8,806 nt of DNA from NCBI GenBank assembly GCA_021604265.1, contig BQIY01000066.1:1-8806 (forward strand). Reading direction: 5' to 3'. Of this stretch, positions 38 to 8,806 are shown piece after piece. The DNA is from Nitrospirales bacterium. GTDB lineage: Bacteria; Nitrospirota; Nitrospiria; Nitrospirales; UBA8639. Each line of letters starts with the position of its first letter. Positions within the stretch are counted from its first letter, which is position 1. Made by a program: the position numbers and the translations under genes. Under the pieces are notes generated by a model. It was not told where the DNA came from. It did not search any database and saw only the letters and a list, made by a program, of their open reading frames with translations.

Positions 38-376
38 ATGCCTGGAACAGTCGAAAACGTCACAGACGAAAACTACGAAGAGTTTAAACAAGCCGCTGGG
101 TCTGTGGTCGCCTACGGTATTGCCTCCTGCGATCCTTGCCAAGCCTACGATCCTATTTTAGAGGAAACCGCTGCTCAATACTCGAATGTTCGAATCGGCA
201 AAGCGAAGATGCATGTTCCCGGTAAATGTCGCGAAATTAAGAAGCAACATACCTTCGAAACCTATCCCACCACCCACTTCTTTTCCAATGGAACGCTCGT
301 TCTGATCCGTGAAGGGAAACTCGAAAGTGCTGAATTGGCAAGTCTGATTACCCAGTATTTGCCAATAAACTCTTAA
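38..376 (+). CDS. Thioredoxin-fold protein with CDPC active site (possibly 5'-incomplete)
   Basis: A 112-residue protein of typical thioredoxin length. C31-D-P-C34 sits where thioredoxins carry CGPC, and Y76-P77-T78 gives the cis-proline loop that faces the active site. This fits thiol-disulfide exchange or a redox-sensing role. It departs from classical thioredoxin: the tryptophan before the first Cys is S30, and the residues aligning with E. coli Asp26 and Trp28 are Ala25 and Gly27, so its redox behaviour may differ. An extra Cys64 is present. No signal peptide is visible from this start, so it is probably cytoplasmic. ATG 38 is preceded by GGAG at 29-32 (spacing 5), and the fold starts soon after the Met, which supports this start. 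However, the frame is open to base 2, so the real protein could begin outside the window. The TAA stop (374-376) lies inside the TTAA that borders the downstream element. No functional link to the PKS cluster is evident. Confidence 0.8.
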   Translation: MPGTVENVTDENYEEFKQAAGSVVAYGIASCDPCQAYDPILEETAAQYSNVRIGKAKMHVPGKCREIKKQHTFETYPTTHFFSNGTLVLIREGKLESAELASLITQYLPINS

Positions 377-1013: not shown

Positions 1014-4000
1014 ATGACGACGTTGAGTAATCAAAAGGTAGCCATTATTGGAATGGGATGTCGGTTTCCAGGTGAGTCTGATAGTCCAGAACAGTTTTGG
1101 CACCTCATGAAGGATCAACGGAACGCCGTCGGACACATTCCTGCATTGCGCTGGGATATGAATCGATTCTATAGCCGTCAAAGCGCGGCGTCCGCGAAGT
1201 CCTATGTGAATCAAGGCCATTTCATTAATTGGGATTATAAAGAGTTTGACGCAGGGTTTTTTAATTTTGCACCAATCGAAGTGGAATATTTTGATCCTCA
1301 ACAACGGTTACTCCTTGAAGTATCTTGGGAAGCAATGGAAAACGCCGGTCTTGATGTCTCGACGCTCACCGGGACAGATGTGGGTGTCTATATTGGTGGA
1401 TTTACATTGGATCATATGTTGAATCAATTTGGGAGTGGCGGACGAAGTACGATTGGGGCTCATAGTGCGGCTGGCGCCACGTTAACCATCCTGTCCAATC
1501 GATTGTCCTATGCGTATGACTTACGAGGACCTAGTATTTCCGTCGATACCGCCTGTTCTTCTTCACTTGTTGTCTTATCCTACGCGGTAAGTGATATGCG
1601 AGCCGGTCGATGTCATATGGCACTTGTTGGTGGTGTCAATATGATGCTCAGGCCGGAATATCCTATTGCCATGTCCAAAGGGCAGTTTCTGGCGCGGGAT
1701 GGACGGTCGAAAAGTTTTGATCATCGTGCAGACGGGTATGGTAGAGGCGAGGGAGCAGGAATTGTTGTACTCAAATTTCTTGAGGATGCCTTACGCGATG
1801 GTGATCGTGTTTTTGCGGTGATTGATGCCGCTGGTGTGAATCAAGATGGACGAACCAACGGAATTACCGTTCCGAATCCCGAGTCTCAAGAAACTCTCAT
1901 GCGGAAGATGGTTGCCGAAGCTGGTATTCATCCGAGCAGTGTGCAGTATGTCGAGGCCCATGGGACAGGGACGCCGGTCGGCGATCCCATTGAAGCCAAA
2001 GCCATTGCGAGTGTCTATGGTAGATCAAGACAAGATCTCTGTCGAATTGGATCAGTCAAAAGTAACATTGGTCATTTGGAGGCGGCAGCCGGTGTGGCTG
2101 GCCTGATTAAAGCCTGTTTAGTACTGAATGAAAATCAAGTGCCGCCACTAGCCACATTAGAACAACCTAATCCAGATATTCCTTTTGGCGAAAATGGTCT
2201 TGCGTTAGCAGACTCTCTATCCACTCTGACTACAAACGGAGAGACACGAAGAGTGGCGATCAATGCTTTTGGATATGGCGGAACAAATGCGCATGCTATC
2301 TTGAGTTTGGATCATTATCGCGTGCCTCAACGATCAGAGCCGTCTTTCAAATCGTCAAAAAGCTTTCAACTTCTTCCGCTATCTGCACGGGATGAGAATG
2401 CATTGCGTGGATTAGCGTTGACATATGCGAATCTTTTAAGAAATAACGATGAGACTCTTGAGGATACTGTATATTCGATGGCTTGCCGACGTACGCATTT
2501 ATCCCATCGGTTGGCCATTTGGGGAGATACGCGAGAAGACTTAGAAGAGGGGCTTAACACTTTTGCGAAAGAAGGCATAGTGCAAAATGGGACTCAAGGG
2601 AGCCAGCCGTTTAAAGGTCAACGGCAACCGGTATTTGTCTACACCGGTATGGGACCACAATGGTGGGGAATGGGGCAAGAGTTGTATCGATATCATGCGG
2701 TCTTTAAACATGCTGTGGATGAAGCCGATGAAATATTTCGAGAAATTTCTGGATTCTCAATTCTCAACGAAATGTCAAAAGATGAAGCGACCTCACGTAT
2801 AACAGAAACCCACATAGCCCAACCAGCAAATTTTGTCTTGCAGTATGCATTAACTCAAGCCCTACGTGCGGAAGGTGTCGTTCCTGCTGCCGTCGTTGGA
2901 CATTCAGTTGGTGAAATTTCTTCCGCCTGGGCCTCGGGTATGTTGAGTCTGCATGATGCCCTTCTTGTTGCGTGTCATCGCAGCCGTATTCAGGCGAAGG
3001 CTGCAGGAAGCGGTGGCATGTTGGCTGTCGGGCTTCGCTATGATGATGTCTATGCTTACGTTGCTGAGAGTCAGGGAACTGTCAGTATCGCGGCGGTTAA
3101 CAGTCCGACCAGTATCACTCTCGCTGGTGATCAGAGTTATCTCAATAACATTCAGGTTGAACTGGAGAAGCGAGAGATATTTGCCCGTCCGCTACGAGTG
3201 GAAGTTCCTTATCATAGTCCGATGATGGAGCCATTAAAGCCAGAGTTGCGAGAGGCGTTGTCCTCACTCAAGCCAAATATTCCCCGTGTTCCTCTCTACT
3301 CGACCGTGACGGGAGGCCTGGCTCACGATACACCTTTTAACGCCGAATATTGGTGTCGGAATGTGCGCGAACCTGTGTTTTTTGCCAAGGCCATTGGTGC
3401 GTTATTGAATGATGACTATACCGTCTTTATTGAAGTCGGACCTCATCCTGTTCTACGAAATTCGTTGAAGGAAGTGTTGGCTGAACACAATGTCGACGGG
3501 CGCATTGTGGAATCGTTCAATCGTAAGAAATCTGAGCAGACGTCGTTTCGCCGATGTATTGCGGATGTCTATGCGCAGGGTGGAGATCTGCAATGGGAGG
3601 CACGTCATCCAACTGGCCAATTTGTCTCTTTGCCAAACTATCCGTGGCAGCGACAACAGTTATGGCGTGAGTCCGAACGGCAGCGGCGTGATCGGCTGCA
3701 TGATATCGCACGGCCCATCCTTGGGATACAAGAGCAGGGAATGAATGTGTGGCGCATGGACTTGGCAGACTATCGTCTTGATTATTTGGCAGATCATGTC
3801 GTGGACGGGATTGCCATCATGCCTGCCGCCGGTTATCTGGAAGCCATGCTGCAATCGGCTTCAGTTGTCAATACGGATGCGAAAGGCAGCTATCGTTTGA
3901 CTGATATTTCTATCGAGAAAGCATTGGTGCTTGGGATTGATAAACCACTGTATTTAGAAACACGGATGGATTCTGATGGCAGGCGTGTTGCCGTGCATAG

Positions 4001-7000
4001 TTTTAATGATGGGGATCCAACCCAGAACACCTGTCATGCGAGTTGTCAGGTCTATCCGTTAATCGGAAATCAAGAAGAGTATCTGGATATCAATGACATC
4101 TCAACGGAAGAAACGCGTGAAGCCACGGAGGTCTATGAAGGGTTTGAGAAATTTTCATTGCAGTATGGTCCGTTATTTCAACCAATCCGCCATGTGCATT
4201 TTCGTGCGAATCGTCAAGAAGTCATTGCGTACCTCCAACTTCCAACAAGTTTGGAAAAGACAAACAAAGACTATATCGCTCATCCGTGCTTACTCGATGG
4301 TTGCTTTCAGACAGTTTTAAGTCTATTGGACTCCAAGGATGGGGCATTTCTTCCAACGGGGATTCGAGATCTGCGAATATTCCAGCCTTTGTCCGATCGG
4401 TTCTGGTGTCGAGGAGTTCTGAAACATCGAGGTCCTCGTGTTGTGGAATGCGATGTAACGCTTATCAGTGAAAGTGGTCTTGTGATCGCACGAATTGACG
4501 GCTTGATGTGTACGGCGCTTCAACCAAAACGTCAGGATCGCGAATATCCGACTGGTGATCATATGTATCGTTGGACTCATGCCGCATTACCTCACCATGA
4601 TCGTCCGAGTCGTACGTGGTTGGTTCTGACAGATGATGAAGTGGGTGCACAAACAACCTTGTGCGCCATGGTCGAACAGGAGGGGCAGGATCGTGTGGTG
4701 CTTAGAAACTGGAATGCAGAAATGTGTTCAACGCTTGTCACGCAAACAGCGTGTGATGCGATCGTATTCATGGCACGTTCCGGATTTGATGATTCTTATG
4801 ATGTCACTGGTGAATTAGCTGCGGCGGCTTTGCTTCGTACGCTACAGGCTTTGGCCACGCGACATGATACTCCCCGTATTTACGTGGTGACACGGGGAGC
4901 ATTTCGCATCGATGACCAAGATGCTCCCACGATTCCAGCACAAGGAACGCTCATCGGATTAACACGTGTTGCACTGAATGAACTCGGACAATTTAGGCCG
5001 ACGACGATTGACTTGCCGCGTTTCATTGATCATGCAACAACGGCAATGCTGGTCCACGAGTTGAGGGCTGACGATGAAAAAGATGAAGTGGCTTTTCGTC
5101 AACATGCACGTTTTTACTCTGAACTTGGTGCGAGCAATATCTTTGTACGAAGTGCAGAGAGAGAGCTGAAGTCTGCCGATGGTGATCGATTTTCTTTGAA
5201 GAACGATTCCCGTTCAGGAACCATCAAGGCGTCATGTGCGCTTATGAGTCGTCTCAAGAGCGGAGAAATTGAACTCAAGATTGAAGCGTCATCGCTAAGT
5301 AGCGTTGCGGCTATGGAACAGTTAGAGGGAGTCGATGATCAAGGTCGGCTCATGACCGTTTGTGGACGTATCTCACGAATGGATTCTGAGTGCCAGGACT
5401 TTATGATTGACGATCGTGTATGTGGATTTGTCCCTGCTGCACTTGCGAGTCACATATCTGTCCCGTTACGCGAAGCGTTACTTGTCCACGTTGAAGAGGC
5501 CATTCCTGCTGAGACTGCGGTGTGTCGTGCTCTGCAGTCGTTGGCCAGGCGCATGCTCGATAGAGTGGAGGTCCGAGCTGGGGAACGCGCATTAGTGTGC
5601 GTCAATGTCCTAGGTCGTGCGGTGGCGGAACAACTTCAGAGTCGAGGAGTCGAGGTTGAACCCTTTCCTGCGCAGTCGTCGCAATGGACAATGACTGCTC
5701 TTCAGCAGGCGCAGACCGCTGGGGCCTTCAGTATTCTTGTGGCTCCACTGACCGAATGGGAGCCAATTTTTGGCTATGAAGGACTGTCGGTTGGTGGATG
5801 TTTGATTGATGTGGGTTTTGAAAAGAAAGGGCATTTTGAACCACTGAGTTGTGGCTCGAGGGTCGGTCAATTAATTCGAATGGATCCACGAGTGGAGATG
5901 CAACGATATCGTCAACAGATGCATGATGCCTTACAAGAGGCGCTTTGGAGCACCCCGGGTCATCTTCCCATGATTGACAGTATAGATGTGGCGGACATGG
6001 AGTCTTGTGACGCTCGTATCATGGCTCAACGTGATCAGGTAACGGTGAGCTATGGTAGTGAAACCATGATAAAAGCTGAGGCAGTGGATTCACCGAATAT
6101 CAAGGAGGATGCTGCATATATCATCACTGGAGCTTTTGGAGGGCTCGGGAAAGAGACGGCGAAATGGCTGGCAGCCCATGGTGCGGGACATCTCATGTTG
6201 GTCGGGCGCTCAGCCGGTCAGAGTCAAGTGGATCAAGTGTTTATGCAAGAACTCGAACGGATGGGATGTCAGGTTTCTGTATGTGCGTGTGACATTGCGG
6301 ACGCTGTACAGGTTGAAAAGCTTATGGTCAAGCTATCGGCATGCGAACATCCATTGCGAGGGATTTTTCATGCTGCAGGAATCATCGATGATAAACCTAT
6401 TGTAGACATGAGTGATCAGGATCTCTTAAGCGTGATGCGTCCTAAGGCCTTAGGAGCATGGAATCTCCATTGTGCCACGGTTGAGTGTAAGCTTGACCAT
6501 TTCGTGTTGTTTTCCTCGATCTCTGTGTTGGTAGGGAACAGCAATCAGGCTAACTACGCTGCGGCCAATGGATTTCTCGATAGTCTTGCGTCTTTTCGTC
6601 GAGCTCATGGCTTAGCTGGCTTGAGTGTCAATTGGGGAGCCATCGAGACCGTTGGTATGCTGAGTCGGGATGCCATGATTGGTCAACATTTGCGGCAGAT
6701 CGGACTGTCGCCTATTTCCTTTGATGCTGGGTTAATCGGTCTTGAGCGGGCGATTTCAGAAGGTGTGACACAGATTGGCATCGCGGACTTTTCAGATTGG
6801 AGTCGATGGGCTCGATACGAAACATACGGTGGACGTTCACCGAGGTTTCGCACGCTGGTTGAAGCAGCGAGAGCAAAGGATGATGATTCGGCTCAAACAG
6901 GGCTTCGTGGAAAGCTAGCGATTTTAGAGCCTCCGCAACGCCAAGAAATCTTAGGAGGGCTGTTGAAAGAAATCTTTGCGACGAAATTGAAAATGTCTTC

Positions 7001-7199
7001 TGCGCAGGTGGACCCCAAGTGTCCAATCGAGTCCCTGGGCGTGGACTCCCTGATGGCTACAGAGATTCAAGGTACGATTAGTGACACGTTAGGCATTTCG
7101 GTCTCAGTTCTCGATCTCGTCGGTGGCGGGTCGATTGCCAAATTAGCCCTCAAGTCTCTCGAGCAAATGCAGTTTGAAGTGGCATGTGATGCCGCATAA
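1014..7199 (+). CDS. Type I polyketide synthase, KS-AT-DH-(psiER)-KR-ACP, no thioesterase
   Basis: A single-module type I PKS of 2061 residues, probably iterative. KS (about 7-430): C181 in DTACSSS, H316 in EAHGTGT, H354 in KSNIGH. AT (about 539-825): nucleophile S631 in GHSVGE and H734 in VPYHS; the motifs favour malonyl-CoA over methylmalonyl-CoA. The linker LPNYPWQR follows. DH (about 899-1168): H928 in HxxxGxxxxP, YGPLF, and D1095 in DGCFQ. A structural KR subdomain (about 1201-1380) and a decayed ER (about 1403-1680) come next. KR (about 1700-1890): TGAFGGLG (1705-1712), K1811, S1835, Y1848, N1852; D1793 in the IIDD motif and no A-type Trp indicate a B-type (3R-hydroxyl) reductase that suits the DH. 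ACP (about 1968-2048): phosphopantetheine site S2012 in GVDSL. The protein ends soon after the ACP, so release must occur in trans, most plausibly by the AOS encoded 22 bp downstream. There is no loading module, so the starter is unknown. The start is set by the strong ribosome site. Confidence 0.96.
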   Translation: MTTLSNQKVAIIGMGCRFPGESDSPEQFWHLMKDQRNAVGHIPALRWDMNRFYSRQSAASAKSYVNQGHFINWDYKEFDAGFFNFAPIEVEYFDPQQRLLLEVSWEAMENAGLDVSTLTGTDVGVYIGGFTLDHMLNQFGSGGRSTIGAHSAAGATLTILSNRLSYAYDLRGPSISVDTACSSSLVVLSYAVSDMRAGRCHMALVGGVNMMLRPEYPIAMSKGQFLARDGRSKSFDHRADGYGRGEGAGIVVLKFLEDALRDGDRVFAVIDAAGVNQDGRTNGITVPNPESQETLMRKMVAEAGIHPSSVQYVEAHGTGTPVGDPIEAKAIASVYGRSRQDLCRIGSVKSNIGHLEAAAGVAGLIKACLVLNENQVPPLATLEQPNPDIPFGENGLALADSLSTLTTNGETRRVAINAFGYGGTNAHAILSLDHYRVPQRSEPSFKSSKSFQLLPLSARDENALRGLALTYANLLRNNDETLEDTVYSMACRRTHLSHRLAIWGDTREDLEEGLNTFAKEGIVQNGTQGSQPFKGQRQPVFVYTGMGPQWWGMGQELYRYHAVFKHAVDEADEIFREISGFSILNEMSKDEATSRITETHIAQPANFVLQYALTQALRAEGVVPAAVVGHSVGEISSAWASGMLSLHDALLVACHRSRIQAKAAGSGGMLAVGLRYDDVYAYVAESQGTVSIAAVNSPTSITLAGDQSYLNNIQVELEKREIFARPLRVEVPYHSPMMEPLKPELREALSSLKPNIPRVPLYSTVTGGLAHDTPFNAEYWCRNVREPVFFAKAIGALLNDDYTVFIEVGPHPVLRNSLKEVLAEHNVDGRIVESFNRKKSEQTSFRRCIADVYAQGGDLQWEARHPTGQFVSLPNYPWQRQQLWRESERQRRDRLHDIARPILGIQEQGMNVWRMDLADYRLDYLADHVVDGIAIMPAAGYLEAMLQSASVVNTDAKGSYRLTDISIEKALVLGIDKPLYLETRMDSDGRRVAVHSFNDGDPTQNTCHASCQVYPLIGNQEEYLDINDISTEETREATEVYEGFEKFSLQYGPLFQPIRHVHFRANRQEVIAYLQLPTSLEKTNKDYIAHPCLLDGCFQTVLSLLDSKDGAFLPTGIRDLRIFQPLSDRFWCRGVLKHRGPRVVECDVTLISESGLVIARIDGLMCTALQPKRQDREYPTGDHMYRWTHAALPHHDRPSRTWLVLTDDEVGAQTTLCAMVEQEGQDRVVLRNWNAEMCSTLVTQTACDAIVFMARSGFDDSYDVTGELAAAALLRTLQALATRHDTPRIYVVTRGAFRIDDQDAPTIPAQGTLIGLTRVALNELGQFRPTTIDLPRFIDHATTAMLVHELRADDEKDEVAFRQHARFYSELGASNIFVRSAERELKSADGDRFSLKNDSRSGTIKASCALMSRLKSGEIELKIEASSLSSVAAMEQLEGVDDQGRLMTVCGRISRMDSECQDFMIDDRVCGFVPAALASHISVPLREALLVHVEEAIPAETAVCRALQSLARRMLDRVEVRAGERALVCVNVLGRAVAEQLQSRGVEVEPFPAQSSQWTMTALQQAQTAGAFSILVAPLTEWEPIFGYEGLSVGGCLIDVGFEKKGHFEPLSCGSRVGQLIRMDPRVEMQRYRQQMHDALQEALWSTPGHLPMIDSIDVADMESCDARIMAQRDQVTVSYGSETMIKAEAVDSPNIKEDAAYIITGAFGGLGKETAKWLAAHGAGHLMLVGRSAGQSQVDQVFMQELERMGCQVSVCACDIADAVQVEKLMVKLSACEHPLRGIFHAAGIIDDKPIVDMSDQDLLSVMRPKALGAWNLHCATVECKLDHFVLFSSISVLVGNSNQANYAAANGFLDSLASFRRAHGLAGLSVNWGAIETVGMLSRDAMIGQHLRQIGLSPISFDAGLIGLERAISEGVTQIGIADFSDWSRWARYETYGGRSPRFRTLVEAARAKDDDSAQTGLRGKLAILEPPQRQEILGGLLKEIFATKLKMSSAQVDPKCPIESLGVDSLMATEIQGTISDTLGISVSVLDLVGGGSIAKLALKSLEQMQFEVACDAA
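5220..6053 (+). other. Decayed enoylreductase (psiER) region inside the PKS
   Basis: Residues about 1403-1680 follow the path of a PKS enoylreductase in order. SGEIELKIEASSL (1416 on) resembles the GEVxxxVxAxxLN start. DDRVCGF and the following stretch resemble the GDRVMGL region and substrate-domain end. RAGERALV (from about 1521) matches the RPGERVLVH strand that leads into the cofactor fold, and CLIDVGF resembles the GGRFxEIGK strand. But the glycine-rich NADPH loop (normally near GGVGxAA) is replaced by NVLGRAVAEQL (1531-1541), and the NFRDV motif is lost (LSSVAAM). The region keeps its frame and length of about 280 residues, so it may still be structural. The alignment is by eye; the inference is that this PKS does not reduce the enoyl intermediate itself. 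Confidence 0.65.
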
Positions 7200-7221
7200 A
7201 TATTTTGTTAGCAATTGGTGA

Positions 7222-8541
7222 ATGAATATGATGAATTCTTCCAGTGAAGATCTTTTGGCAGCGTTTAAAAAAGAATTTCTCGGTCCTTCCGGCGTGAAGA
7301 AGTCCAGTAAAGCGGAGTCTTTTGATCCGTTGTCGATGGATGTGGCGTCGATGGAAGACTATCAACGTATCCTTGAAATGCGAACATTTTATTCTCGTGA
7401 GGGAATGTGTAATCCCTATTTTATGCCGCGTCAGGGAGTCATTTCTGATCGAGTGCAGGTTGAGGATTGTGAGTACATCAGTTATTCCGGTTACAACTAT
7501 TTGGGGCTTTCCGATCATCCCCAGGTAATCGAATCGGCGAAGAATGCACTGACTCAATATGGAACGCACGCAGGTGCTGCACGAATGGTTGGGGGACAGA
7601 TGGAAATCCATCAAGCATTAGAGCGTGCATATGCCGACGCGTTTGGGTTTGACGACTGTGTGATGTCTGTTGGGGGATACGCGGTCAATGTTATGACTGT
7701 CAGTTACCTTCTTGGGGCCAACGATCTTATTCTGATGGATGAACTCATGCATAACAGCGGTGTCATGGGAGCGGTGATGTCACAGGCTCGGCGGATCATC
7801 TTTCCTCACAATGACTACCGTGCGTTGGGTCGTCTTTTGAAAGAGCACCGAATGAACTATCGTCGTGCCATGATCTTGGTCGAGGGTGCGTACAGTATGG
7901 ATGGTGATCTTGCACATCTTCCGTCTTTGCTCGCGCTCAAGCGTCAACATCATGCGTGGCTTATGGTTGATGAAGCACATTCTCTAGGTGTGGTCGGCGA
8001 AACGGGAAGGGGACTGTGTGAACATTGGGGAATTCCGGCATCCGAGGTTGATCTCATCATGGGAACCTTGAGTAAAAGTTTTGCGAGTTGTGGCGGGTTT
8101 ATCGGAGGATCTCAGAAGATGATAGATATGCTTCGTCATTTTGCTCCTGGCCTTTTGTTGTATAGCACGGGCCTCCCTCCAGCGAGTGCCGCTGCAGCAC
8201 TTGAAGCCCTGAATGTCATGCTCACGGAGTCAGCCCGCGTGCAACGGTTGCATCGTAATATTGAACGCTTTGTAGCATTGGCAAAGGAACGGGGGTTTGA
8301 TGTGGGACAGGCCGGTTTGTCAGCGGTTGTTCCGATTAAGCTAGGCGATACGATGTTAGCCCTCCATCTGATGTCAGAACTTCTGAAAGTCGGCATTATT
8401 GTTCATGCCGTGATGTATCCCGTTGTGCCAAAGAATGAAGCGAGGTTGCGGTTCTTTTTGACTGCCCAGCATACCGAAGAGCAATTCGTTCTCACCCTTA
8501 ATCGACTCCGTGAGCTGATTGATCACTATTCGATTTCTTAA
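7222..8541 (+). CDS. PLP-dependent alpha-oxoamine synthase (AONS/SPT/KBL family)
   Basis: A 439-residue fold-type I PLP enzyme of the family that condenses an acyl thioester with an amino acid, with loss of CO2, to give an alpha-amino ketone. Visible signatures: Y85-ISYSGYNYLGLS; H177 in DELMHNSG, at the PLP-stacking His position; IFPHND; D250 and H253 in DEAHS followed by GVVGETGRG; Schiff-base K285 in TLSKSFASCGG; and the RLRFFLTA segment (R408, R410) near the carboxylate-binding Arg. The amino acid used (Ser, Ala, Gly or other) cannot be read from these motifs. It lies 22 bp after the PKS with no terminator, consistent with co-transcription and with use of the PKS-bound chain. Residues 1-60 form an extra N-terminal segment compared with about 385-400-residue relatives; SEDLLAAFKKEF could be a helix. 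The Shine-Dalgarno is weak (GGTGA, 7217-7221), and it sits better for ATG 7228 or 7231 than for 7222, so the true start may be two or three codons in. A biotin-synthesis role is unlikely in this context. Confidence 0.93.
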   Translation: MNMMNSSSEDLLAAFKKEFLGPSGVKKSSKAESFDPLSMDVASMEDYQRILEMRTFYSREGMCNPYFMPRQGVISDRVQVEDCEYISYSGYNYLGLSDHPQVIESAKNALTQYGTHAGAARMVGGQMEIHQALERAYADAFGFDDCVMSVGGYAVNVMTVSYLLGANDLILMDELMHNSGVMGAVMSQARRIIFPHNDYRALGRLLKEHRMNYRRAMILVEGAYSMDGDLAHLPSLLALKRQHHAWLMVDEAHSLGVVGETGRGLCEHWGIPASEVDLIMGTLSKSFASCGGFIGGSQKMIDMLRHFAPGLLLYSTGLPPASAAAALEALNVMLTESARVQRLHRNIERFVALAKERGFDVGQAGLSAVVPIKLGDTMLALHLMSELLKVGIIVHAVMYPVVPKNEARLRFFLTAQHTEEQFVLTLNRLRELIDHYSIS

Positions 8542-8569
8542 ATCTCTAAATGTTCTGAGACATGAAACA

Positions 8570-8806
8570 ATGATGTTACACAAATTTGCAGAGAGAGTTG
8601 TGACGCGGCCATGGTTGATCATTGGACTCCTGTCCCTATTGATGACCGTGATATCGGTGGGTTCCAGTTGGTTGACATTCCGGAGTGATGATCGAATCTT
8701 TTTTTCTCACGAAAATCCAGAGCTTCAGGATCTAGAACGTTTTGAAGAACAGTACGGACGTGAAGACAATATCGTGTTTGTGATTACGGCAAAAAGTGGT
8801 GATTTG
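8570..8806 (+). CDS. RND/MMPL-family exporter, N-terminal part only
   Basis: The first 79 residues of a protein that runs off the right edge. A short basic N-terminus is followed by one transmembrane helix (about residues 15-37, starting PWLIIGLL). Then comes the start of a periplasmic loop with FRSDDRIFF, ENPELQ, LERFEEQYG and EDNIVFVI. This pattern (acidic pair, FF, NPEL, an acidic helix, then a strand) is characteristic of RND-superfamily predicted exporters of the MMPL/HAE3 group, which move lipids and other amphiphiles. The start ATG 8570 has GAGA at 8557-8560 nine bases upstream; ATG 8573 is an alternative. It follows the AOS by 28 bp without a terminator, so it is probably the third gene of the operon and may export the product. 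Substrate and subfamily cannot be fixed from this fragment. Confidence 0.85.
   Translation, partial: MMLHKFAERVVTRPWLIIGLLSLLMTVISVGSSWLTFRSDDRIFFSHENPELQDLERFEEQYGREDNIVFVITAKSGDL

What the first reader, a model, noticed from the sequence alone, without database searches (positions are those of the whole stretch)
1014..8806. Compact PKS - alpha-oxoamine synthase - RND exporter operon: candidate pathway for an amino-ketone (sphingoid-like) lipid
Three same-strand genes with gaps of 22 and 28 bp combine a chain-building single-module PKS, an enzyme that caps acyl thioesters with a decarboxylated amino acid, and a lipid-type exporter. Established: PKS plus AOS pairs make fumonisin-, AAL-toxin- and sphingofungin-type molecules in fungi, and AOS enzymes build prodiginines and sphingolipid bases. 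Inferred: this bacterium makes a long-chain, partly unsaturated alpha-amino ketone or its reduced amino alcohol and exports it. I do not recognise this gene set as a characterised bacterial pathway.
Basis: partly seen in the sequence, partly recalled or inferred. Interest (0 to 1): 0.75.

Follow-up and report, generated by a model that had tools for sequence, protein, structure and literature searches.

The report
Exporter-coupled polyketide–aminoketone lipid operon
A gene cluster shared by several unrelated bacteria appears to build a long unsaturated lipid ending in an amino-ketone (like the first step of sphingolipids) and to ship it outward through its own envelope exporter; it is a distinct, untested relative of the recently described polyketide route to bacterial sphingolipids.

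Summary
In detail: a one-module PKS (1014-7199), an alpha-oxoamine synthase (AOS, 7222-8541) and the start of an MMPL/RND exporter (8570 to window end) on one strand, 22- and 28-base gaps. In relatives (Nitrospirota, Gammaproteobacteria) RND is followed by a LolA-like gene (11 of 11 loci) and a putative outer-membrane protein (10 of 11; one contig ends). The window belongs to a different clade. Loci without the exporter have PKSs of about 2,500 aa with intact enoylreductase motifs (15 of 15), often with ketoreductase or LTA-synthase-like genes; a rhizobial capsule-type locus joins them. Exporter-linked PKSs, the window's included, have a degenerate enoylreductase (11 of 11 from loci; 16 more from a biased fetch). 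No SgaC orthologue was found in 6 exporter-type genomes tested. Most likely product: an unsaturated alpha-amino-ketone lipid sent to the outer membrane or outside. Amino acid, chain length and later reduction are unknown; no chemistry was tested. New variant of a known kind.

The parts
1014..7199 (+). Mono-modular, probably iterative PKS, 2061 aa: KS-AT-DH-(degenerate ER)-KR-ACP
   Evidence: residues C181, H316, H354, S631, H734, H928, D1095, S1835, Y1848, S2012 present (their catalytic roles are recalled)
1032..2159 (+). KS domain (residues 7-382)
   Evidence: PF00109/PF02801
2631..3563 (+). AT domain (residues 540-850); GHSVGE and VPYHS motifs; malonyl preference inferred from recalled rules
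   Evidence: PF00698; motifs
3738..4532 (+). DH domain (residues 909-1173) with H928 and D1095
   Evidence: PF21089/PF14765
5241..6098 (+). Degenerate enoylreductase region (residues 1410-1695): no NFRD motif, no HGAAGGVG-type nucleotide-binding motif, no ELGKRD; 286 residues against 321-340 in the sister group
   Evidence: profile matches ER and quinone-oxidoreductase structures, best E 3.2e-15
6111..6647 (+). KR catalytic domain (residues 1700-1878)
   Evidence: PF08659
6963..7148 (+). ACP (residues 1984-2045), phosphopantetheine serine S2012
   Evidence: PF00550
7222..8541 (+). Alpha-oxoamine synthase (AOS), 439 aa; PLP lysine K285; extra N-terminal helix 8-20 followed by a low-confidence linker
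   Evidence: AF2 model mean pLDDT 87.7, best PDB match serine palmitoyltransferase 3a2b
8570..8806 (+). N-terminal 79 aa of the MMPL/RND exporter; runs off the window
   Evidence: 70% identity over 79 aa to the L001 RND protein, which is PF03176

Best explanation
This is the front of an operon (five genes in relatives) for making and exporting a sphingoid-like amino-ketone lipid. Proposed steps: (1) the PKS extends a starter with malonyl units iteratively, reducing each keto group (KR) and dehydrating it (DH). (2) Its ER region is degenerate, so double bonds stay in the chain unless a separate enoylreductase acts in trans. (3) The AOS takes the finished chain from the PKS ACP, condenses it with an amino acid (serine most likely, by analogy with SgaB) with loss of CO2, and releases an alpha-amino ketone. 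(4) The MMPL/RND pump extracts it from the inner membrane, a LolA-like periplasmic protein carries it, and the putative outer-membrane protein places it in or through the outer membrane. Shown by sequence: gene order, families, active-site residues, ER degeneration, clade split, exporter linkage in relatives. Inferred: iteration, unsaturation, substrate hand-over, transport route. Unknown: starter, chain length, amino acid, further modification.
For: RND and LolA-like genes in 11 of 11 exporter-type ('R') loci, a type that I defined by the RND gene; outer-membrane gene in 10 of 11, L041's contig ending about 185 bases after LolA. Flanking genes differ between lineages. PKS active-site residues intact. 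ER motifs absent in 11 of 11 PKSs from loci (window included, L044 left out as cut) and in 16 more proteins (biased fetch); present in 14 of 14 PKSs of loci without the exporter ('S') and in the rhizobial one. AOS closest to serine palmitoyltransferase by sequence and fold. AOS tree: R rows in a 44-row clade (100/98), S rows in a 17-row clade (100/100), unmixed; KS-AT tree: R and S each one clade, SH-aLRT 100 (quick method). LolA-like gene in 0 of 3 S genomes, SgaC-type SDR in 0 of 6 R genomes. SgaB precedent: PMC12134224.
Against: I found no chemistry for any exporter-type cluster. The exporter may serve another lipid. Loss of ER motifs does not prove a polyene: a stand-alone enoylreductase may work in trans. 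The 'outer-membrane protein' has no Pfam match, its profile found nothing meaningful in the PDB and its AF2 model was useless (pLDDT 31); it rests on signal-like N-termini and a C-terminal Phe in the 3 examples printed. The LolA-like and outer-membrane genes are seen only in relatives. A phosphopantetheinyl transferase family match in 5 of 5 genomes is uninformative, since 10 of 14 control genomes match too.
Confidence: 0.7

Rival explanations
1. Same chemistry as SgaAB: a trans-acting enoylreductase from fatty-acid synthesis replaces the lost ER, and an unlinked reductase reduces the ketone, so the product is an ordinary saturated sphinganine that happens to be exported.
For: Nearest characterised relatives are SgaAB-type enzymes. 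Trans-ER partnering is established for LovB/LovC (recalled; the LovC structure is the last and weakest match, 0.087). A generic SDR lies near the operon in 4 of 4 loci of the L047-L050 lineage.
Against: No intact-ER or SgaC-type gene in the five-gene unit. Best SgaC match in 6 R-type genomes is 27-33% identity or none at 1e-15. The SDR near L047-L050 is only 24-28% identical to the SgaC-type reference; no such match at 1e-10 in the L001 and L041-L046 stretches, several of which are short.
Confidence: 0.25
2. The AOS is a BioF- or Kbl-like enzyme of primary metabolism that sits beside a PKS by chance.
For: NCBIfam's best hit is bioF (340.3 bits), below its cut-off of 426.45; many sources name these proteins 8-amino-7-oxononanoate synthase.
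Against: Eight more distant AOS-family proteins (33-38% identical; that they are BioF/Kbl-like is my assumption, they were not annotated) split off at 100/100 from all PKS-linked ones. A PKS is next to the AOS in 11 of 11 R-type loci, and next to it or one gene away in S-type loci. The NPIRA02 genome has a second AOS-family gene elsewhere (38%).
Confidence: 0.03
3. The product is an anchor for an exported polysaccharide or other surface polymer, as suspected for the rkp/wcb capsule clusters, rather than a free lipid.
For: Named S-type loci sit among capsule genes; PMC3908369 describes rkp/wcb PKSs as parts of capsule/LPS clusters (passages).
Against: No capsule, glycosyltransferase or LTA-synthase gene belongs to the conserved unit; no ORF of the 11 R-type loci matched the LTA-synthase or capsule reference at 1e-10. 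However, a glycosyltransferase-2 gene lies in the L047 flank, and some flanking ORFs of L041, L043 and L044 look sulfatase-like by eye and were not scanned.
Confidence: 0.1

Closest known systems
PfSgaA-PfSgaB of Pseudomonas fluorescens MYb115 (PMC12134224)
   Same: One-module PKS with a PLP-dependent AOS; SgaB has serine palmitoyltransferase activity; products are C24-C28 sphinganines and proposed phosphoglycerol sphingolipids (abstract, sections 7-9 and passages seen).
   Different: The window lies in another clade: degenerate ER, PKS about 440 aa shorter than S-type ones, RND-LolA-OMP genes in relatives instead of an SDR (SgaC). PfSgaA/B sequences were not in hand; I place them in the S clade by gene order: in L067 the SDR is the 5th gene after the AOS, as the locus tags of SgaC (RS19775) and SgaB (RS19800) suggest.
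rkp/wcb capsule clusters (RkpA/WcbR PKS; rhizobia, Burkholderia)
   Same: PKS next to AOS; the S. meliloti pSymB locus has PKS, AOS, SDR, an LTAS-like ORF and a capsule gene. That this is the rkp locus is recalled, backed by a reference title.
   Different: Intact ER motifs; capsule genes; no RND-LolA-OMP listed among its 14 annotated features.
Mycobacterial PKS + MmpL lipid systems (MAS, Pks2; PpsE-MmpL7)
   Same: The best PDB match of the PKS is mycocerosic acid synthase; synthesis coupled to an MMPL transporter (PMC1238737, listing only: title and abstract start).
   Different: Different release and products (recalled); a different envelope.
Aryl polyene cluster exporter (ApeL/M/N; PMC8253772)
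   Same: RND transporter with Lol-like partners proposed to place a polyene lipid in the outer membrane (passages).
   Different: Core of separate KS/KR/DH/ACP proteins; a DUF3261 LolB-like protein rather than PF17131 plus a putative barrel.
TOL_3187/TOL_3188 of Thalassolituus oleivorans (PMC6304351)
   Different: RND and LolA-like fused; the passages name no PKS or AOS beside it; not compared by sequence here.
Vitroprocines of Vibrio (PMC4523872)
   Same: Amino-polyketides released by a proposed PLP-dependent step (passages).
   Different: Tyrosine/phenylalanine-derived; no gene cluster in the passages seen.
swf clusters of sponge symbionts (PMC3908369)
   Same: One-module PKS; swf-like clusters are reported from Nitrospirota MAGs (PMC9426513, passages).
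   Different: KS-AT-DH-ER-KR-ACP; partners are a reductase-sulphotransferase and a radical SAM protein; HATGT motif (passages). The window has HGTGT and an AOS.

Membership tests
Sga/Rkp/Wcb-type PKS-AOS clusters (S clade) | One-module PKS beside an AOS | tested here: met
Sga/Rkp/Wcb-type PKS-AOS clusters (S clade) | Intact enoylreductase in the PKS | tested here: not met
   Motifs intact in 15 of 15 S-type PKSs examined, absent in the window and in every R-type PKS examined; no ER Pfam in the window or L001, present in L067 and L059
Sga/Rkp/Wcb-type PKS-AOS clusters (S clade) | PKS and AOS fall inside the S clade | tested here: not met
   Both fall in the R clade; the true PfSgaA/B were not in the trees
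Sga/Rkp/Wcb-type PKS-AOS clusters (S clade) | SgaC-type ketoreductase (SDR) | tested here: not met
   No orthologue in 6 of 6 R-type genomes; the 3 S-type controls, each chosen with an SDR already seen in its locus, matched at 44-52%. By relatives only: the window's genome is not held
Sga/Rkp/Wcb-type PKS-AOS clusters (S clade) | AOS uses L-serine | not testable with these tools
   Needs an assay; position 153 is Tyr in 42 of 42 R-clade rows and His in 17 of 17 S-clade rows used, so specificity could differ
Alpha-oxoamine synthase family | PLP lysine, AOS-like sequence and fold | tested here: met
   K285 invariant in 25 rows; fold matches SPT 3a2b, TM 0.84/0.94
BioF (8-amino-7-oxononanoate synthase) | Reaches the NCBIfam equivalog cut-off | tested here: not met
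   340.3 bits against a cut-off of 426.45
MMPL/RND exporters | MMPL domain | tested here: inconclusive
   Met for the L001 orthologue; the 79 aa in the window give no family match by themselves
Aryl polyene clusters | Separate KS/KR/DH/ACP proteins with an aryl starter ligase | tested here: not met
   The five-gene unit has none of these; features
swf clusters | ER-containing SwfA with HATGT motif and SwfB reductase-sulphotransferase | tested here: not met
   Window has HGTGT, a degenerate ER and an AOS partner (features)

The most novel reading that the evidence does not exclude
The cluster makes a previously unknown class of membrane lipid, a conjugated polyene capped by an amino ketone, and places it in the outer membrane through a dedicated RND-LolA-barrel route: a single-PKS counterpart of aryl polyenes built on a sphingoid head, found in Nitrospirota and scattered proteobacteria.
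Probability: 0.3. Interest if true: 0.82.

Novelty: new variant of a known kind. Interest (0 to 1): 0.6.

Why it matters
PKS-derived sphingolipids in bacteria were reported as a first in 2025, in a paper whose main text does not mention RND transporters. This work separates the PKS-AOS clusters into two branches that differ in the enzyme (enoylreductase kept or lost) and apparently in the fate of the product (headgroup and capsule genes, or a trans-envelope exporter). If right, it predicts unsaturated amino-ketone lipids in some Nitrospirota and proteobacteria, and gives a compact, testable model of how such a lipid reaches the outer membrane.

Tried and rejected
Rejected: BioF/Kbl (below cut-off, separate branch); swf and aryl polyene membership (features not met); the window PKS as an S-type enzyme (both trees put it in the other clade). 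No Rfam match in the window. Promoter and terminator scans at chance level.

Led nowhere: the OMP profile gave one meaningless PDB match (E 0.1), and the single-sequence AF2 model of the L001 protein had pLDDT 31. A repeat of the class search matched 1 of 361 genomes (its own centre) and the genomes listed were largely those, so the Pseudomonas/Ketobacter branch was seen only as proteins sharing contig lengths, not as gene neighbourhoods. Docking between the PKS C-terminus and the AOS N-terminus was looked at: the ends vary too much for a claim. The first attempt to collect outgroups failed and was redone. first checked a few active-site columns one residue off; one search repeated them at the right positions.

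Rows dropped or not used: L044 from the ER tally (PKS cut to 390 aa); L042, L044 and L045 from the KS-AT tree (cut); L071, L074, L075 and L076 from the ER tally (cut, no PKS found, or a different kind of PKS); L052 not scanned by Pfam; RND row P0360 from the contig-length match (I had typed a wrong length; 119 of 120 used). Of the 120 AOS rows, 37 went into the AOS tree and 25 into the AF2 alignment. Of the 120 PKS rows, 27 were used and 16 in the ER tally and the KS-AT tree; these were fetched with the degenerate ER region itself as query and are no independent evidence of its absence. Of the 30 rows labelled R in the AOS tree, 18 are labelled only by a contig length shared with an RND row; for three of these the contig is a 4.9-6.4 Mb chromosome, where sharing says little about adjacency.
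Full report
WHAT IS THERE. The window holds, after a thioredoxin-like gene, a 2061-aa PKS (1014-7199), a 439-aa AOS (7222-8541) and the first 79 aa of an exporter (from 8570), all on one strand. Pfam finds KS, AT, DH, KR and ACP in the PKS, and the expected active-site residues of all five are in place. The AOS scores best in the PDB with serine palmitoyltransferase of Sphingobacterium multivorum; its AF2 model (25-row alignment, mean pLDDT 87.7) has the same best match by fold, 3a2b, TM 0.84/0.94. Its NCBIfam bioF score is below the curated cut-off.

THE WHOLE UNIT. No genome is held for the window. The closest relative found is a contig of Nitrospirales bacterium NPIRA02 (L001; AOS 80%, PKS 76% identity) with the same order, also behind a thioredoxin-like gene. 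There the RND gene (PF03176) is followed by a LolA-like gene (PF17131) and a gene without Pfam match. Its product has a signal-like start, and in the three homologues printed the last residue is Phe; I read it as an outer-membrane barrel, but this is not shown.

DISTRIBUTION. I call a locus R-type if the AOS is followed by the RND gene and S-type if a PKS and AOS lie together without it. With the AOS as query, 8 of 395 genomes of the phylum of NPIRA02, itself included, matched at 1e-80; five have PKS-AOS-RND-LolA-OMP (L001, L047-L050). Of the other three, one AOS (L051) falls in the S clade with no PKS in the fetched stretch, one (L053) is an AMP-ligase-ACP-AOS fusion, and one lies on a 4-kb contig (L052) that I did not scan. 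In the order of G002, 6 of 24 genomes, G002 included, matched at 1e-100, all six R-type (L041-L046; the PKS is cut by a contig end in L042, L044 and L045). In class and phylum samples the only hits at about 62% were G414 and G002 (2 of 369) and G002 (1 of 398), all in that order; the other 10 and 5 matching genomes are at 39-48%. RND and LolA-like genes are present in 11 of 11 R-type loci and the OMP gene in 10 of 11, the exception ending at the contig edge. Most gaps inside the unit are a few bases or overlaps, but the OMP gene follows 314-372 bases after LolA in L047-L050. Flanking genes differ between lineages. Nineteen contig lengths are shared between an AOS row and an RND row of the best-120 protein lists, ten of them under 20 kb; the longer ones include Pseudomonas nitritireducens, P. 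nicosulfuronedens, Pseudomonas sp. M30-35 and Ketobacter alkanivorans. Equal length implies the same contig but is not proof, and on whole chromosomes says little about adjacency.

THE ENOYLREDUCTASE IS DEGENERATE. Residues 1410-1695 align to the ER of related PKSs but lack NFRD, the HGAAGGVG-type motif and ELGKRD. These are absent in 27 of 27 R-group PKSs examined (11 from loci, window included, found through the AOS; 16 proteins fetched with this region as query and so biased) and present in 14 of 14 S-type PKSs and in the rhizobial one. That the region derives from an ER is supported by hhalign of R against S profiles (probability 99.3 over 192 columns) and by a PDB profile search whose best match is CurK 5dp1 (an ER domain, recalled), E 3.2e-15, followed by other PKS chains and quinone oxidoreductases. 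Pfam finds no ER domain in the window or L001 PKS but does in the L067 and L059 controls.

TWO CLADES. In the AOS tree (71 rows) the 15 S rows fall in one 17-row clade (100/100) and the 30 R rows in one 44-row clade (100/98), unmixed; 18 rows of unknown context lie in either (14 in R, 2 in S) or outside both (2). The branch that would make R and S each other's nearest sisters against those last two is weak (84/33), and the tree program warned of long outgroup branches. Only 12 R labels rest on seen loci; 18 rest on shared contig lengths. By raw identity the L047-L050 AOS is slightly closer to the S-type reference (47-52%) than to L001 (46-47%), though the tree puts it in R. In the KS-AT tree (quick method) R (25 rows) and S (14 rows) are each one clade with SH-aLRT 100 and join against 7 chosen outgroups. 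S-type stretches carry an SDR, an LTA-synthase-like gene or both in 11 of 15, and none of the 15 had an RND, LolA or OMP match; none of the 11 R loci matched the LTA-synthase or capsule reference at 1e-10, though a generic SDR (24-28%) lies near L047-L050. At genome level, 3 S-type genomes (chosen with an SDR already in the locus) matched the SgaC-type SDR at 44-52%, while 6 R-type genomes gave 27-33% or nothing at 1e-15; the LolA-like gene was in 6 of 6 R-type (already seen in their loci) and 0 of 3 S-type.

KNOWN RELATIVES. PMC12134224 (abstract, sections 7-9 and passages) shows that PfSgaAB makes C24-C28 sphinganines, that SgaB condenses acyl-CoA with serine almost exclusively, and proposes SgaC as ketoreductase; its main text has no occurrence of 'RND', 'enoyl', 'capsul', 'rkp' or 'wcb'. 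PfSgaA/B sequences were not in hand. I place them in the S clade because the SDR is the fifth gene after the AOS in the Pseudomonas plasmid L067, as the locus tags of SgaC and SgaB suggest. An S. meliloti pSymB locus (PKS with intact ER motifs, AOS, SDR, LTAS-like ORF, capsule gene) joins the S clade; that it is the rkp locus is recalled, supported. For the exporter, aryl polyene clusters (PMC8253772, passages), a Thalassolituus MMPL-LolA protein with a porin (PMC6304351, passages) and mycobacterial MmpL systems (PMC1238737, listing) are working analogies, not families of membership.

MECHANISM. Intact KR and DH with a degenerate ER predict double bonds; the AOS predicts an alpha-amino ketone; the exporter set predicts removal from the inner membrane and carriage across the periplasm. 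Fusions of AMP-ligase and ACP to related AOS domains (L053, L076) hint at acyl-ACP as substrate in the wider family. The amino acid cannot be read from sequence: position 153 is Tyr in 42 of 42 R-clade rows used (30 labelled plus 12 of unknown context; two more of that clade were left out) and His in 17 of 17 S-clade rows.

NOVELTY. Ten paper searches listed no paper whose title or abstract start describes a PKS-AOS-RND-LolA cluster; the library lacks most subscription papers and preprints, so this is weak. The thing is best filed as a new variant: an exporter-coupled, enoylreductase-defective relative of the Sga/Rkp/Wcb clusters.

Noticed in passing
window 38-376 (+): Thioredoxin-like protein with a CDPC motif; 85% identical to one in front of the L001 operon, so the neighbourhood of thioredoxin-like gene and PKS operon is conserved between the two organisms.
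   Followed up: partly
L066, L067, L068, L077: SgaAB-type PKS-AOS pairs lie among capsule genes with SDR and LTA-synthase-like genes, including Sinorhizobium meliloti pSymB. This suggests that SgaAB and the rkp/wcb capsule PKS systems are one family, which the main text of the 2025 SgaAB paper does not mention; rhizobial capsule anchors could be sphingoid-like.
   Followed up: partly
L066:10944-11858, L068:10892-11818: In these two Burkholderia-group loci a gene annotated as UDP-3-O-acyl N-acetylglycosamine deacetylase lies between PKS and AOS.
   Followed up: no
L053:9189-12662 (-), L076:6476-9820 (+): Single proteins that fuse AMP-ligase, ACP and AOS: possibly another way to make amino-ketone lipids.
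   Followed up: partly
L047:2740-3474, L048:3074-3805, L050:1512-2243, L049:15329-16249: A generic short-chain dehydrogenase lies near the outer-membrane gene, beyond one or two small ORFs, on the opposite strand in all four loci of this lineage; a possible ketoreductase for the product.
   Followed up: no
L047-L050 PKS, near the KS GHLE motif: These four PKSs read VKATIGHLE where the others shown read KSN(I/L)GHLE; the His is kept but the Asn is replaced.
   Followed up: no
L041:1-1326, L043:15503-17383, L044:10537-12000: Flanking ORFs that by eye resemble sulfatase/LTA-synthase-type membrane proteins; not scanned against Pfam, and none matched the LTA-synthase reference at 1e-10.
   Followed up: no
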